The position numbers and the translations under genes were made by a program. Of a stretch of DNA of 64,000 bases, positions 22,705 to 38,693 are shown in pieces. The notes beneath the pieces were generated by a model that had not been told where the DNA came from, made no database searches, and saw only the letters and a program-made list of their open reading frames with translations. Origin of the DNA: Acytostelium subglobosum LB1. Lineage: Eukaryota > Evosea > Eumycetozoa > Acytosteliales > Acytosteliaceae. Numbering within the stretch: position 1 is the stretch's first letter; every line of letters begins with the position of its first letter. The stretch lies in assembly GCF_000787575.1 (NCBI RefSeq), contig NW_012236504.1, forward strand, positions 372,001 to 436,000, read 5' to 3'.

Positions 22705-24963
22705 ATGGAACTGGATACCAGACAACAACAACAACTTAATGAATGATACAAAGAAGATGTATCAGTTACTAAAGACAGTGTTGCAGAGCAGAGTGATTCG
22801 GATGAATGTCATGCATCATGTGCATCAGATACATGTCGTGTTGATGAAGGCAGCAGGTGTGCCACTGACACACATCATGTCAGGTGATCAGTTTGAAAAG
22901 GAACGATGTCTCCCAACAATGTTGCGATATGGCAGGACTGACATATTCATGAAGTACTTTGATGCATTTGTCCAGGCAAAGCCACAAGGTGTCACTCTTC
23001 ACCTTCGACATCTGCTTAAGGTGGCAATCGATACCAACAACATCAATGTGGTGAGACATCTGTTCAAATTCAATCGAGATAACAAACTCTTGGACGACAG
23101 CTCATCAGTCATTAATCAACAGATCGAGTTAACCGTCAAGATGGATCGACATGACATGGTCGGTCTGCTACTGTCCGAATTCGAGTTCGTCAACAATAGA
23201 AAACGATCATCACACAACAAAACAAATGAGCAGATCTCTTTTGGACGGATGTACTGGATGTGCCAGTCATTCAAGATGCTTCAGACAATCCACTCGCAAT
23301 GCCATCTGTTCAAACCACAAGTCGGACCAGAGGATGTTTCAGTCCAGTTGATTCGGACACTGACAATCGACGATTTCCCAGTCCTCCTCGCCTTTCTCCG
23401 AGGCCCCAGCCTCAACGCCAACAAAGCCTTCTACAACATCTTGGTGCATCACATGAATAACATACCTCTACTTGACTGCTTCTTTAGCCTGGAGACGTTT
23501 ATGGCAAGCACTCGTAAATACCTTGCGTATAATATCTTCCCCGACAGGGAAGATGATTGGAGCAGTATGGACCTCCTCACCTCGATGCAGACACCAGAAG
23601 GCTTATACTTTGCCAAACGATATCGCCAACACCTTCCAAGCGACTGCATCTACTTTGCCGCAGCCACTCATGGAGAAGTTGATCTCGCACAATGGACCAT
23701 TGAACGACAACTACCAGCATTCTCGGACGTCCATGTCGCCGCCGCACTCGAGCACGGCTTTATCGACGTTGCATTATACATCTTGGACAATTGCAATGTG
23801 GCTGACGATGATAATGGCGAATGCCCTCCGTCCCTGTTCCCGAATTACAATGACAATGGACCACGAACATGGCTACTAAATCGTCCAATTGACGACTCCA
23901 TTCACTCGATGGAGCTTCTTCAGCGGCTGGCATCGTCCCGCAACATCACATTTGAATATGGCATCCTCTTATCACCCGGTATGACACTGGAGACATTAGA
24001 ATTCATCAAGGCGAACGATCCATGTTGAGGGAGCCACAGATTATGCTGGTCAAGGACATCACTTTGATCAGGAAACTCTTGGAACGAAACACGGACAATC
24101 TTAATTTAATGGTGGCGAACGTCGTTATCAGCGGGCGTCACGAAGTTCTGGCAGTACTTGCACAGACTGGGTGTAGTGTTGGTCCTGAAGTACTGGCTGA
24201 ACTTTGCACTGTTGAGCAAGCTCGAGTTCTTCTCGACTCGGGATGTTTGGCGCAAGAAAACAAGTCTCCTATTATTGGCCCCCTGGAGGTCATCATTGAT
24301 TGCTTCAACGACATATCATTGGTTCGTGACTATCACAACAAGTTTGGCAAAGTCGATGCAGATGAGTCACGCTCATTTTCTCGTGCAATGACAAAAGCAG
24401 TTGGGCATGGCAACATGGAGATTGTTCGCTTCCTTCACCAACACCATCATCACGGACTAGATGATTGCGATAAGAATGATTTGCAAGAGGCAGTCTACGA
24501 TGGACACATGGATGTGTTCAAATTCCTCATTGACAATTACACAACAGAGTGGAGCATGTCACATCTCTACCAAGCTGTTGAGAATGGACACACGGACATA
24601 GTGGATTACATCCTTCACTCGCATGTCCATCTCCTGAACCTTCCTCGAGACATTGCCGCCTACTTTGGTTATGTTGAATGTGGACACCTTCCAATGTTGA
24701 AGGCCTATGTCAGTTTGGTAACTCGCATGGACAAAGAGGATCAAAGAAAGGCTGTCTATAACCTCACGGTACATGCCTATAGTAACTTGCCTCGATACTA
24801 TACCTCAGCCATGGATCGTTGATACAAGGTAGCAATTTGTCTCCAATACCTCATGGACCATCTTTTAATTCCAAACATGGATGTACCCATTGCCAAACTG
24901 CTTGGACAGGCATATGAGCGAGGTCATCTCCTCATGGTTGAGTATCTATCTAAACTCCATTAA
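22705..24963 (+). pseudogene. ankyrin-repeat family copy A, interrupted
   Basis: The copy matches the intact 754-residue copy at 45136..47400 over its length. It starts either at ATG 22705, with a one-base slip near 22735, or at ATG 22739. The N-terminal dictyostelid block (VMHHVHQIHVVLMKAAGVPL, THIMSGDQFEKERCL) is followed by degenerate ankyrin-type helices such as NGHTDIVDYILHSHVHLL. There is a frameshift near 24,020, where about a dozen residues are also missing relative to the intact copy. A TGA at 24820-24822 replaces the Gly codon GGA seen in both other copies; the frame then continues to the family C-terminus at 24963. As a whole it is probably non-functional, although a shorter protein of 429 residues could be made. 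Confidence 0.8.
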
Positions 24964-31509: not shown

Positions 31510-31545
<36 letters not shown>

Positions 31546-31626: not shown

Positions 31627-32760
31627 TCAATCAATAAGCTCAACAGATAGGATACCTTGTGGATGGTATGGATATGGAAGTTGTCCAAAGGTGTTGTTGC
31701 GAATGTACACACCAAGGTCATTGGTCAGGATCTGCCAGATGTCATCGATGTAGGTTGGATAGGAATGAATGCATCCGTGTGATGGTGGCATGGGCTGCGA
31801 TGGTGTCCAACCAGCCCACTCGCCAGTATGCAATAGTATACCGTCTCTAATGTTACTGATGACGATGTAGGCATTGCCGGCCAATCCCTCCACCGCTCTA
31901 TTCACTGGGTATGGTCCAAAGTCTGCTGGGTCATCCTCCGGTGAGTTCAAATCGAATGTATACAATCCAGTTGGTGTTGCTCCATCTGGGCACAACTCAT
32001 TGTATGGATTTCCATTCGAGTCACTCTGTCCAAGTGTCCTAAGTTGATTGATTGGAATGATTGAGTGAGTGATTGATTGAGTGGGATGATTCCAATGATG
32101 AACTGGAATGATAACATACTTGACGGTAAAGGTTAACAATGGCTTCAAGTTAGAATCAAAGAGAGTGGCATTTGTCTCAATTGAACGATTGCGGTAAACT
32201 GGAACATGGACCTTGTAAAGGAATCCAGGTGGGATCTCACCATTGTCCTTATATCCATCATCCAAATTCTTATCCAACAATACTGTGGCGGTATTAATAT
32301 CCATCACACCAGTTGATGAACTATATACATATATAAATATGATGGAAGTATGTTAGGTCATCAATCACATAACATAATGATCAACTATGTTTACATTTTG
32401 GCTACAGATTGGAACTTCTTGAGAGCAGCCTCAGTGAGCTCATCAAATGTAGCAGAGAGTGGGATGTTTGGAACAGTCCTCTCAAGCAATGATTGAAGGA
32501 TATAGACATCTTGTCCAGTCATTGGTTGTGATGGTACGTATGACAACTCTCTAGTGAATGGGCATGGGTACTATTGTTTGATTGATCGATTATTTGATTA
32601 GGTTGTTGATGTGAGTTAGTAAATGTGATGATGACTTGGTCATCAATATGTTGATGTTACATACTGAGGAGTTCACTGTTATGTATTGATGATCTCTTGA
32701 TTGAGCATTGCCAATCATCAAGGTCACTATAACCAATGTAATGATTGTATATTTGTTCAT
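31627..32760 (-). CDS. secreted YkuD (L,D-transpeptidase-like) protein with peptidoglycan-binding domain
   Basis: Exons are 32760..32665, 32570..32395, 32320..32120 and 32038..31627, giving 294 aa with all joins in phase. Residues 1-20 are a signal peptide (YTIITLVIVTLMIGNAQS). A PG_binding_1-type domain follows (QPMTGQDVYILQSLLERTVP, then KKFQSVAKISSTGVMDINTA across an intron). The C-terminal half is YkuD-like: GLYTFDLNSPED, AYIVISNIRDGILLHTGEW, and MPPSHGCIHSYPTYIDDIW. The catalytic set is His228, His245 and Cys247; the spacing matches the HxX(14-17)[ST]HGC motif, with His in place of the usual Asn/Arg after it. Bacterial enzymes make 3-3 peptidoglycan crosslinks. In an amoeba it probably binds and acts on food or pathogen walls. 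Four host-type introns show it is a resident gene of likely bacterial ancestry. Confidence 0.9.
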
Positions 32761-33290: not shown

Positions 33291-36200
33291 TTATGAAAGA
33301 TGAGTGACAATCAATTGCTTGGTAGCATTGGACATGACGGCAGACTGTGAACGGATTGTCAGACGACACATGCATGCTTGTGGATTGCACTCAATGCGAA
33401 TCAGAACAAAGAGTGGACTCTTGCCATATGGGAACAGTGCTGCAGACACAAGGTTGTTGGGGTTGGGGTCGATCATCTTGAGCGTCGTGATCTTGAGACC
33501 CTCGCTCAACGTCTTGTTGAAGGCGGCAGTGTCGATGGGCTTGCTTGGCTTGAACACCTCCTGGATCTCGACGGGCTTGCCGGGCAGGATCTTCCACTTG
33601 GCAAAGAAGTCGCCAGAGTTGAGGTTGTATGGCTCAAAGAACTTGGACACGACGATCGGCAGCCTCAGGTGGATGGTGATTGGTCGGCCTGGTGTGAGGA
33701 AGTTGATCACAGCCGTTGGCGACTCGGAGAACTCGCCAGTGCATGTAAATGTGATTGTCTGCTGAATCTGTACCTTGGGCTGGATCACAGGCGCGATCGA
33801 CTGTGCCTGCACTTGGAGTGCGCTGGTCGAAGCCGACTCGATCACTGTGTTGAAGCCCGACAGTGGGAACGATGAGTTGTTGCCGTAGTACAGGACGATC
33901 CTGCCCTGTGCACCATTGTACTCGGACTTGAGACCAATCTGGATCATGGAGTCCTCGTATAGGACACCCTCGGCGTTCAGACACAGACGGTTGAACGCGT
34001 TGGCAATCTTGATCTGAAGCGGGTCGATGGGTGAGCCTGTCGAGCCAGTGTTGGGCGACAAGTTGGCCATGGTTGGCGACAGGAGGTTGTGCTGGCCCGA
34101 GCCAAATGGCGAGCCGCCCGCTGGCTGCTCAAGCTGTGGTAGAGCAGGCTGCTGCATGAGTTGCAGCTGTGGCTGCTGAGGTGGCATCTGCTGCTGTGGC
34201 TGGTTGCCCACGCCAAGTCCGAATGGATCGAGCAGGTCCAGTTGGTTACCGCTGGCAACGTTGCTGTTGCCGCCGCCGTTGGACAGGGCGGTGGCGGGGA
34301 TGGCCTGATGGTGCTGCTGTGGCTGCTGCATTCCATTGGAGCCATGCGCGCCAATGCTGCCAGTGTTGCTGTTGATAAGGTCTCTGTTCTCAGAGAATGC
34401 TGGGATGACATCGAGCACGGTCTGCATCAAGTCCTCGTTGAGGTTGGTGAGGTTGAGGTACTCGCACGCACGCTGCTGGATCTCGGCGTCGATGTAGTTG
34501 GTGTGCTGCTTGAACACCTCCTGCGTCTGCTGTGTTAGCTCGGGGAACAAGTTGACAAACTTGGCGTAGGTGGACAGCAACAGCGCCTTGGTCTGTAGGC
34601 CGCACGTGGCAAACTTGGAGTGCAGAGTGTTGAACTGGATGAAGGGTGTGCTGGCAGGGTTGTCGGCGATCAGATGACCAAACTCACCGAGGATGTAGCC
34701 TCCAACCTTGACCAGGGTCTCGTGAGAGTTCTTGGCCTGGAGCGCATTGAACACGGTGCTGGCAGCATACGTCTGGATGTCCTCGTGGTTGGTGACGATC
34801 TTGACCACGCGGTACCAGATGTCGTCCGAGACAAAGTCGCCGGCTGATGTGATCAGCTGGAGGATGACGTCGACGTACCACGAGTAGTTCGAAGCGAACT
34901 TCTCGGCAAGGTTGGCAATCTTAATGACCAACTCCTCTCTGATGTTGTAGTCTGCTGTCTGGAGGTAGGTCAACAGCTCCGCAACAATAATCTTACTCGT
35001 GTCCTTATCGCACATGCCGTACAGCAAGTCCAATGCTCTACGTCTAATACTGATATCTGCGTCTCTGAGTGATACTACGTTATTGATTGATTGTTAGAGA
35101 GTGATAGAAAGCAATGCATGGATGTGGACTACATACGAATGACAGTGTCTTGGTACTTCTTGATCATGACTGATGTCTCGTTGGAGAGCGATGCAAAGTG
35201 AGACATTGCCTCGAGGCCCAAGTATCTAATGTTCGTCTCCTTCGCAGTGATGAATCGGCCAAGCAGTGTAGAGATCTGAGCCAACAATGCTGGATCGCTA
35301 TTGATTGATTGATATAATGAGTGAGTGATCATTGATTATTGTGTCACATACAAGACAACAACCAACATACTTATCATAATGGATGATCAAATTGATTGCC
35401 TCGAATAGGACAGCGTTCAGGGCGTTCTTATGATTGATGGTACCGGCCTTAGCACTCTCGGACACGGAGAGGACAGAGTTGAGCACCTCGGTGAGCTTGC
35501 GTGCATTGGCATCGTTGTCCAAAGGTGGGAAGTAGCGCAGGAAACGCAGAAGCTTGACCTGGAGCCAGGGACAGGCGATGTGATAGTAAATGTATTCCTT
35601 GGCCGTCTCCTTCTGTATGACGATCTTGTGAAGCAGGTGCACGACCTTGGGCACGGCGGGCTCCCAGCCCTCAGCCTTCTCCGACACCAAGTGGATCAAC
35701 AGACTCATCAACGAGTTGAGCACACCAAAGTCTGTCTCGTTGAGCACTGAGATCAATCTCTCCACCCAAGCATCAGGAGTAACCAGTCCTATATGATTGC
35801 GATTCATCCTAAGTATAGCCAAAGATGCTCTCTTCTTTACCATTGGTGATGATGTCCTAGTTTGTTTGATTGATTGATTGATTGATCGAGTGTGAGTGAG
35901 TGAATGAGCAAGCAAGAGACGATGAATCAATCAACTTACTCGGCAATCAATAACTTCTGAATGACTGGTGCAAGAAACTCGGCTGTTTCCTTTCCACCAA
36001 TGTTACAGATGGCTGACAAGGCCAATGATTGGAAGTAATCACTTCTGGCCATGAGGTCCTCCTTGAACGAGTTGATCACCAATGGCAACAACTCATGAGT
36101 TTCACTCAGTAGTACTCCAAGTGCAATGTATCCCTAGATTATAGATATACATATTAGATCATCATGTGATTGATTGATCGAATCGATTGAATGATCAAAG

Positions 36201-37256: not shown

Positions 37257-38261
37257 TTAGAAATCGGCATCGAGAATAAAGGCACGTGATTGAGCCGATG
37301 ATTGGTTCTGACCGGAGCTCTGCTTGGCCACGCCACTCTTGGCGTACTCTGAGACTCGGTTCTCAAAGAAGTTGGTCTTGCGCTGCAACGAGATCATCTC
37401 CATCCAGTCGAATGGGTTGGCCGAGTTGTATATCTTCTTGTAGCCGAGCGAGACCAGCAGACGGTCGGCGCAGAACTCAATGTACTGGCTCATCTGGCGG
37501 CCGTTCATGCCGATCAGATCGACGGGCAGCGACTCGGTGATGAACTCCTTCTCGCAGGCGACGGCGTCGCGGATGATCGACTCGAGCACCGCGGCATCCA
37601 GACGGTTGACCAGCTTTTGGTACAGCATGCAGGCAAAGTCGCAGTGCAGACCCTCGTCTCTGCTGATCAGCTCGTTGGAGAACGACAGGCCGGGCATCAG
37701 ACCGCGCTTCTTCAGCCAAAAGATCGAGCAGAAGCTGCCGCTGAAGAAGATGCCCTCGACGGCGGCAAAGGCCACGAGACGCTCGGCGAACGACTTGGAG
37801 TTGGAGATCCAGCGCAGGGCCCAGTCGGCCTTCTTCTTGACGGCGGGGATCGTCTCGATGGCGTTGAACAGCTCCTTCTTGCGCTCGCTGCTCTTGATGT
37901 ACGTGTCGATGAGGAGACTGTACGTCTCAGAGTGAATGTTCTCGATGGCGATCTGGAAGCCGTAGAAGCAGCGTGCCTCGGGTATCTGCACCTCGGACAT
38001 GAAGCGCGTGGCCAGATTCTCGTTGACGATGCCGTCCGACGCGGCAAAGAATGCCAGCACATTCGTGATGAAGTGGCGCTCATTGTCGTTCAGCTTGTTC
38101 TCCCAGTCGTTGGTGTCTGCGGCCAAGTCCAACTCTTCGGCAGTCCAGAACGATGCCTCAGCCTTCTTGTACATATTCCAAATATCTGGATACTTGATTG
38201 GGAACAGGACGAATCTATCCTTATTCTCTCGCAATAGTGGTTCATCTTGAATCGCTTGCAT
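37257..38261 (-). CDS. rnrB: ribonucleotide reductase small subunit (R2)
   Basis: A single exon of 334 aa. All R2 landmarks are present: [20 protein letters not shown], the first helix with ligand Glu, [20 protein letters not shown] with ligand residues and the radical-region Tyr, [20 protein letters not shown], and [18 protein letters not shown] with the Glu/His pair. The C-terminus AFILDADF is the peptide that docks to the R1 subunit. The protein carries the diiron-tyrosyl radical for making deoxyribonucleotides in the cytosol. Lack of introns fits its high, cell-cycle-linked expression. The promoter side (38262-38710) has two E2F-like sites. Codon use is the most GC-rich of the window, as expected for a highly expressed gene. 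Confidence 0.98.
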
Positions 38262-38445
38262 TATTATATTATGTGTTTGTGTTTGTGTATTTGTATTTGT
38301 ACTTGTACTTGTATATATGTTTGAATGAATGTATAAGATTGAGTTGATTGTTATCTGTTGATGTAATATTAGGACACGTATTAATAACTTATGCACATTA
38401 CATTGAGAATGACGTGAAATGTACAAAACTAACGTAACGCACTCG

Positions 38446-38453
38446 TTCGCGCC
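38446..38453. promoter_or_regulatory. E2F-like site, rnrB proximal
   Basis: TTCGCGCC lies 185 bases upstream of the rnrB start (minus strand). It fits the common E2F/DP core TTCGCGCC. Ribonucleotide reductase genes are known E2F targets in animals and plants. Binding here is inferred. Confidence 0.4.
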
Positions 38454-38693
38454 CTGTTTGTGTGTGTTGTTCAATCAAATATATTACCGTTTCTTGTAAA
38501 TGATGTAACTGTGATTGATCAATCAAACAATATATCTATCTAACTTTGATTGGCAAGCAATTACTTCTGTTTATCTGTTTGGTTTGATTGAGTGTGAATA
38601 AGTGGATGATGTGTGTGTCTTGTTCCGGAACAAGACTCCAGATCAGTCAGTCATTCGCTCATCATCAATTTTAAAATTGAAAGAAAGAATGGG

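What the first reader, a model, noticed from the sequence alone, without database searches (positions are those of the whole stretch)
31627..32760. Eukaryotic secreted L,D-transpeptidase-like protein with a peptidoglycan-binding domain
The four-exon model joins a signal peptide, a PG_binding_1-type domain and a YkuD domain with His228, His245 and Cys247 in the canonical spacing. L,D-transpeptidases are known as bacterial cell-wall crosslinking enzymes. An intron-bearing amoebal version suggests domestication of a bacterial gene, perhaps to cut or remodel walls of prey. His replaces the Asn/Arg that usually follows SHGC, so the reaction may differ.
Basis: partly seen in the sequence, partly recalled or inferred. 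Interest (0 to 1): 0.8.

Follow-up and report, generated by a model that had tools for sequence, protein, structure and literature searches.

The report
Slime-mould gene for bacterial-wall-cutting enzyme
A social-amoeba chromosome carries an intron-containing gene for a probably secreted protein built from two parts that are best known from bacteria and their viruses, a peptidoglycan-binding part and an L,D-transpeptidase-like part, and it may help the amoeba break down the walls of the bacteria it eats.

Summary
On the minus strand, four exons (32760-32665, 32570-32395, 32320-32120, 32038-31627) with three GT-AG introns encode 294 aa: a signal-peptide-like N-terminus, a full PG_binding_1 domain (35 bits, cut-off 23) and a YkuD domain just over the Pfam cut-off (24.3 against 23.4) with His228, His245 and Cys247. 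A profile of 12 bacterial and phage sequences scores the spliced protein 42.0 bits, 33.5 with intron 3 kept; the best of 2000 shuffles is 6.6. Flanking genes are dictyostelid, so this is not contamination. The new point is lineage: in a 43-row tree the domain falls in one starred branch (100/99) with phage endolysins, RHS-tipped proteins and small bacterial enzymes, apart from 25 other PF03734 domains; its sister is unresolved. The residue after SHGCI is His; 77 of 77 relatives, mostly similar virus contigs, have Arg. Best reading: a laterally acquired antibacterial L,D-peptidase/carboxypeptidase, secreted or sent to phagosomes, not a cross-linker. Not tested: transcripts, other eukaryotes, activity. 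The structure prediction failed.

The parts
32665..32760 (-). exon 1; codes residues 1-32, start ATG at 32760, signal-peptide-like N-terminus
   Evidence: Kyte-Doolittle peak 3.1 at residues 6-14; no signal-peptide program was run
32571..32664 (-). intron 1 (GTATGT...TAG, 94 nt)
   Evidence: splice sites and frame only
32395..32570 (-). exon 2; first part of the PG_binding_1 domain
32321..32394 (-). intron 2 (GTAAAC...TAG, 74 nt), in-frame stop inside; interrupts PG_binding_1
32120..32320 (-). exon 3; end of PG_binding_1, linker, first part of the catalytic domain
32039..32119 (-). intron 3 (GTATGT...TAG, 81 nt, no in-frame stop; could be retained)
   Evidence: removal raises the profile score from 33.5 to 42.0 bits
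31627..32038 (-). exon 4; most of the YkuD catalytic domain and the C-terminus, stop TGA 31629-31627
32278..32519 (-). PG_binding_1 domain, residues 50-105 (span includes intron 2)
   Evidence: 35 bits, E 1.7e-8
31738..32217 (-). YkuD catalytic domain, residues 126-258 by the relatives' profile (span includes intron 3)
   Evidence: 42.0 bits; Pfam residues 175-264, 24.3 bits
31828..31830 (-). His228, first His of the H-X(15)-SHGC motif
   Evidence: alignment
31771..31779 (-). His245-Gly246-Cys247; Cys247 is the predicted nucleophile
31765..31767 (-). His249, in the place of the usual Arg/Asn

Best explanation
A dictyostelid gene of bacterial or phage origin that codes for a secreted or phagosome-targeted antibacterial enzyme. 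The signal sequence sends it into the secretory route; PG_binding_1 holds it on peptidoglycan; the YkuD domain uses Cys247 with His228 (and His245 in the SHGC loop) to attack the bond before D-Ala4 of the tetrapeptide stem. The acyl-enzyme is then released to water or a small amine rather than to another stem, so the net effect is trimming or weakening of the prey's wall. Shown here: reading frame and domains, the catalytic residues, membership of a YkuD side branch that includes phage lysins and RHS-tipped proteins, dictyostelid context. Inferred: secretion, the reaction, the role in feeding, the direction of transfer.
For: Gene model and residues. PG_binding_1 and YkuD over their Pfam cut-offs. 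Independent profile without the query: 42.0 bits, best of 2000 shuffles 6.6. BLASTP with a relative from the Bacillota sample: 37 of 106 identical, E 1e-11 for that single comparison. Tree of 43 rows: query and 17 bacterial/phage rows against 25 other PF03734 rows, 100/99. Company of the side branch: Glucosaminidase + YkuD in L058 with PHROG endolysin matches; Rhs_assc_core before YkuD in L134 and L135. The query's own PG_binding_1 part also matches a PHROG endolysin family (25 bits). PMC3482391 (passages): RHS L,D-peptidase toxins are predicted to hydrolyse the stem peptide. PMC9638812 (passages): the T6SS effector Tlde1a has this motif and trims and exchanges stem D-amino acids. PMC10434034 (passages): SXGChA in place of SXGChR was proposed to mark enzymes that hydrolyse the stem-lipoprotein bond. 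Host context: Dict-STAT-coil, STATa_Ig and SH2 on one side, alpha-adaptin on the other.
Against: The Pfam YkuD score is only 0.9 bit over the cut-off. The query is the longest end branch of the tree (2.1), and its place inside the side branch is weak (91/30). Most side-branch rows were found with a profile or pattern that included the query, and the branch is thinly sampled outside viruses. None of 8 scanned side-branch proteins has PG_binding_1, so the two-domain layout was not found in any possible donor. Two side-branch proteins fall below the YkuD cut-off themselves (L104 17.0, L135 22.8). No solved structure matched: single sequence, one unrelated hit at E 0.81; profile A10, best E 0.031 (Pgp2). 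The only structure prediction failed (mean pLDDT 31.6). One relative, L133, has lost the catalytic residues, so presence of the domain does not prove activity. The secreted form rests on intron 1, which no homology tests. No RNA, localisation or activity data.
Confidence: 0.6

Rival explanations
1. It is a true transpeptidase: the amoeba makes new cross-links or swaps D-amino acids in bacterial peptidoglycan, or uses it on a wall-like polymer or protein of its own (for example in spores or stalk).
For: The full H-X(15)-SHGC motif is kept. PMC9638812 (passages): Tlde1a does both trimming and exchange and makes small amounts of 3-3 cross-links.
Against: The Arg/Asn after SXGCh named for P. aeruginosa LDTs (PMC10434034, passages) is His here; nearest kin found include lysins and RHS-tipped proteins. 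Dictyostelids are not known to make peptidoglycan (recalled).
Confidence: 0.17
2. A non-enzymatic or decaying protein: PG_binding_1 does the work (bacterial recognition or opsonisation), and the YkuD domain is a remnant.
For: Divergent domain with a long branch; His at a position that is Arg in 77 of 77 relatives; the relative L133 keeps the sequence signature without the catalytic His and Cys.
Against: His228, Ser244, His245, Gly246 and Cys247 are all intact, as are TPTGLY and the GPY and R-GI-LH surroundings shared with relatives; the frame is open across four exons.
Confidence: 0.13
3. An old eukaryotic or amoebozoan family, not a recent lateral gain; the bacterial and phage kin are only distant relatives.
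For: Long branch; highest identity to a tree row 30% over 125 columns; one relative only in 1,247 genome slots over seven single-protein searches (some genomes counted twice) and none in the two GTDB-wide pattern scans.
Against: The papers seen describe these enzymes from bacteria; the query lies in a branch of bacterial and phage rows with 100/99 support against the rest. An old lateral gain would look the same.
Confidence: 0.1

Closest known systems
Small L,D-transpeptidase of Paenibacillus polymyxa plasmids (WP_019688392) and the unnamed protein L132/L052 from the Bacillota sample
   Same: YkuD domain with G-(N/A)TPTG-Y, YG-Y, R-(T/D)-G-(I/L) and H-(G/T)-G, P-(S/T)HGC; 35% identity over 106 residues for L132
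   Different: No PG_binding_1 match, Arg instead of His after HGC(V); function known only by annotation
Cyanophage-type endolysins (Synechococcus phage S-CBS4 gp063 and IMG/VR kin such as L058)
   Same: Same YkuD side branch; in L058 fused to another wall-active domain
   Different: The partner in L058 is a Glucosaminidase domain; longer loop between His and THGC; Arg after HGC
RHS-tipped L,D-peptidase proteins (L134, L135; class described in PMC3482391)
   Same: Same side branch, catalytic His and Cys kept
   Different: Carried behind an RHS core in genomes of the Bacteroidota sample; Arg after HGC
Tlde1 T6SS effectors (PF10908; Tlde1a, PMC9638812)
   Same: L,D-transpeptidase motif used as a weapon to trim and exchange stem peptides (paper, passages)
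   Different: The query did not match PF10908 up to E 1; L132 touches it below cut-off, 17.4 against 30.1 bits
Fungal CwhA, a secreted NlpC/P60 endopeptidase of Aspergillus fumigatus (PMC12332128)
   Same: Secreted eukaryotic protein made of a bacterial-type SH3 domain and a cysteine peptidase domain, lytic for some Gram-positive bacteria (paper, passages)
   Different: Different catalytic family (NlpC/P60) and different second domain

Membership tests
YkuD / L,D-transpeptidase catalytic domain (PF03734) | Score over the curated Pfam cut-off | tested here: met
   24.3 against 23.4 bits; 25.4 for the unspliced exon 3-4 frame
YkuD / L,D-transpeptidase catalytic domain (PF03734) | Catalytic motif H-X(14-17)-(S/T)HGC-h | tested here: met
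   His228, 15 residues, Ser244-His245-Gly246-Cys247-Ile248; motif as written in PMC9638812
YkuD / L,D-transpeptidase catalytic domain (PF03734) | The fold of the family | tested here: inconclusive
Classical cross-linking L,D-transpeptidase | Arg or Asn after (S/T)XGCh | tested here: not met
   His249; of 45 rows 43 have Arg, one Asn, the query His
Classical cross-linking L,D-transpeptidase | Makes 3-3 cross-links or anchors lipoproteins | not testable with these tools
   needs purified protein and muropeptide analysis
Phage-lysin / RHS side branch of YkuD | Groups with the side branch against other PF03734 domains | tested here: met
   100/99, 18 against 25 rows; long branch, sister unresolved
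Phage-lysin / RHS side branch of YkuD | Arg after (S/T)HGCh | tested here: not met
   His in the query, Arg in 77 of 77 relatives; described as a divergent relative of this branch, not as one of its lysins or toxins
Tlde1 domain (PF10908) | Match to the family profile | tested here: not met
   no match up to E 1
PG_binding_1 (PF01471) | Score over the curated cut-off, full profile | tested here: met
   35 against 23 bits, positions 1-57 of 57
Laterally acquired eukaryotic antibacterial wall enzyme | Signal peptide and secretion | tested here: inconclusive
   Hydrophobic N-terminus by Kyte-Doolittle; no dedicated predictor or localisation; exon 1 joined by splice sites and frame only
Laterally acquired eukaryotic antibacterial wall enzyme | Absent from most eukaryotes, close prokaryotic sister | not testable with these tools
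   no eukaryotic collection held; no close sister found

The most novel reading that the evidence does not exclude
A social amoeba has taken over the catalytic tip of a bacterial or phage weapon, an L,D-peptidase of the lysin/RHS branch, joined it to a peptidoglycan-binding domain and a signal peptide, and changed the active site (Arg to His) so that it works as a hydrolase on prey walls. That would be an L,D-peptidase arm of bacterial digestion by a phagocyte; the D. discoideum killing review seen here (PMC13399256, passages) has no occurrence of a word beginning with peptidase in its main text.
Probability: 0.35. Interest if true: 0.75.

Novelty: new variant of a known kind. Interest (0 to 1): 0.5.

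Why it matters
Dictyostelids are model phagocytes. The review seen here counts at least 22 putative lysozymes in D. discoideum (PMC13399256, passages), enzymes that hydrolyse peptidoglycan. An enzyme cutting the peptide stems would be a second, complementary way of taking walls apart. It would also be an intron-bearing eukaryotic use of a fold known mainly as a bacterial wall builder and a beta-lactam target, and a case, beside fungal CwhA, of eukaryotes arming themselves with bacterial-type wall enzymes.

Tried and rejected
Close prokaryotic relatives were sought and not found. tblastn of the whole protein: plasmids 0 records; phages 10 records, none better than E 0.02, three of them Synechococcus phage records matching in the catalytic part and seven matching in residues 31-97. 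GTDB-wide scan with GILLHTGxW and [EPT]MPxSHGCI: 17 pattern stretches, 0 relatives. GTDB-wide DNA pattern for H-x-G-x(13)-HGCIH: 34 stretches; 8 lie in an open frame over 100 aa with the motif, and by eye and BLASTP (best E 0.005 over 25 residues) none is a YkuD protein. Single-protein searches of 1,247 genome slots: one real relative (L052, E 6e-7). Of the other seven hits, L048 (a 143-aa frame with a chance THGC), L049 and L053 were opened and show no YkuD protein; L050, L051, L054 and L055 were not opened. With the 5-row profile A10, which holds the query: 1 of 199, 1 of 150, 2 of 148 and 1 of 4 genomes (samples overlap the earlier ones, and the first and last hit are the same gene). Virus contigs: nothing with the query or its core alone, with artificial alignments or with DNA patterns (10 and 1 stretches, all chance); 74 relatives of 91 stretches with A10.

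Dropped rows: before the alignment, L133, L139, L144 and L158 (motif not found by my pattern; L133 was later opened and lacks it) and L162 (second fetch of L132's gene); before the tree, L154 (same row as L147) and L129, so 43 of 45 aligned rows. Of the 78 loci L001, L002, L056, L057 and L058-L131, 15 were aligned. The ordinary PF03734 rows come from 30 loci out of a longer match list over 12 genomes. The 77-row residue count covers 77 of 78 loci (L058-L135 without L133); its pattern did not ask for Arg, but the scan that brought in 74 of them allowed only Arg or His there, and many are near-copies.

Structure: the job on A11 failed (pLDDT 31.6), so no fold search was made on it. A12 was misaligned and not used. 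Papers: YkuD with eukaryotes and lateral transfer, Dictyostelium with transpeptidase, L D-transpeptidase with eukaryotes, dictyostelid transfers, YkuD with Dictyostelium (one paper, PMC3482391): no paper on a eukaryotic L,D-transpeptidase was seen in these listings; the library holds open-licence papers only.

Full report
What is there. The minus strand of 32760-31627 reads as a four-exon gene with three GT-AG introns of 94, 74 and 81 nt, giving 294 aa. The first 20 residues are strongly hydrophobic (peak 3.1 at residues 6-14) and look like a signal peptide; no dedicated program was available. Pfam finds PG_binding_1 at residues 50-105 (35 bits) and YkuD at 175-264 (24.3 bits, cut-off 23.4). 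His228 is followed after 15 residues by Ser244-His245-Gly246-Cys247-Ile248-His249.

Is it more than chance. A profile built from 12 bacterial and phage relatives, without the query, scores the spliced protein at 42.0 bits; 2000 shuffles of its catalytic half reach 6.6 at most; among 1,194 stop-to-stop frames of the window of at least 30 aa the only hit is the unspliced frame of the same gene (34.4 bits). Removing intron 3 lifts the score from 33.5 to 42.0 and extends the match over the first strands. Intron 2 lies inside PG_binding_1, whose profile is matched end to end only after splicing. Intron 1 is supported by splice sites and frame alone. In each exon the predicted frame has the best codon-usage score of three, narrowly so in exon 1, but one frame of intron 3 scores higher than any exon, so this measure adds little. 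Two of the three joins thus rest on homology, none on RNA. Intron 3 has no in-frame stop and could be retained.

Where it lies. The flanking frames carry Dict-STAT-coil, STATa_Ig and SH2 on one side and alpha-adaptin domains on the other, so this is dictyostelid chromosomal DNA, not a bacterial contaminant. The species was not identified. One YkuD motif stands in the window: the only other [ST]HGC in the six frames, at 24504 on the plus strand, lies in a frame broken by stops.

Relatives. No close prokaryotic relative was found in what was searched. One distant one was, an unnamed protein from the Bacillota sample (L052, fetched again as L132; 37 of 106 identical). The phylum is that of the named genome from which the sample was drawn. 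Through it came small enzymes on Paenibacillus polymyxa and Rhizobium plasmids, 74 virus-contig loci and three more hits, L133 in the Pseudomonadota sample and L134 and L135 in the Bacteroidota sample. The rows aligned share TP-G-Y, a YG motif in most, R-x-G-(I/L/M) before H-x-G in most, and (S/T)(H/N)GC.

Tree. With 43 rows, the query and 17 side-branch rows are separated from 25 ordinary PF03734 domains by a branch of 100/99 support. The two RHS-tipped proteins stand apart from the other 16 (91/30, weak); the query, L104, L132, the plasmid pair and the phage group form an open fork. The query has the longest end branch (2.1), so its sister cannot be named. Most side-branch rows were collected with queries that held this protein, which favours their grouping; the support against ordinary domains is nevertheless high. 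Against solved structures, the profile A10 has 15 listed chains up to E 1, best Pgp2 at 0.031, below significance.

What the side branch does. L058 is Glucosaminidase plus YkuD and matches PHROG endolysins; the kin in Synechococcus phage S-CBS4 is annotated N-acetylmuramidase or endolysin. L134 and L135 carry Rhs_assc_core before YkuD. L133 has a degenerate copy without the catalytic residues, with a weak Tae4 match (20 bits, cut-off 27) behind it; Pfam did not list YkuD for it. The plasmid and Bacillota proteins have no known role. A 2012 survey of polymorphic toxins (PMC3482391, passages) proposed that RHS L,D-peptidases hydrolyse stem peptides. This is a company of wall attackers more than of wall builders.

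The odd residue. P. aeruginosa LDTs are described by (S/T)XGCh(R/N), and Ala there was proposed to mark enzymes that hydrolyse the bond between stem and lipoprotein (PMC10434034, passages). Here it is His. Among 45 aligned rows 43 have Arg, one Asn, the query His; among 77 relatives, 74 of them virus contigs and many near-copies, all have Arg. This fits an altered fate of the acyl-enzyme but does not prove it.

How it most likely works. Secreted or delivered to phagosomes, held on peptidoglycan by PG_binding_1, Cys247 attacks the stem peptide next to D-Ala4 and water or a small amine releases it. The shown steps are frame, domains, residues, lineage and host; secretion, chemistry and role are inferred. 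In the passages read, the review of killing by D. discoideum treats lysozymes (at least 22) and membrane-permeabilising modules (PMC13399256). A. fumigatus CwhA is a worked parallel in a fungus (PMC12332128, passages).

Limits. The YkuD score is marginal, the structure prediction failed, no eukaryotic sequences could be searched, and none of 8 scanned relatives has PG_binding_1, so where the two-domain layout arose is open. The gene may already be listed in dictyostelid annotation under a domain name; no paper on it was seen in the listings.

Noticed in passing
32119-32039: Intron 3 is 81 nt with no in-frame stop, so a retained form would add 27 residues inside the catalytic domain.
   Followed up: partly
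L133:751-1944 (minus): A protein from the Pseudomonadota sample with the side-branch YkuD signature (profile E 1.1e-18) but without the catalytic His and Cys, followed by a weak Tae4 amidase-effector match.
   Followed up: partly
L134:1183-2370 (minus), L135:997-1971 (plus): RHS-core proteins from the Bacteroidota sample with the same YkuD side branch behind the core, one with a further SH3_3 domain.
   Followed up: partly
L058-L131: 74 virus-contig loci encode this YkuD branch, most in frames of about 318 aa; L058, the one long member scanned, is a Glucosaminidase-YkuD protein with endolysin matches.
   Followed up: partly
about 31510-31545: A tract of ATTG repeats lies just downstream of the gene; similar short tracts are seen nearby.
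   Followed up: no
33291-35930 and 37257-38474: Conserved neighbours: alpha-adaptin (AP-2) pieces and ribonucleotide reductase small chain, both on the minus strand.
   Followed up: no
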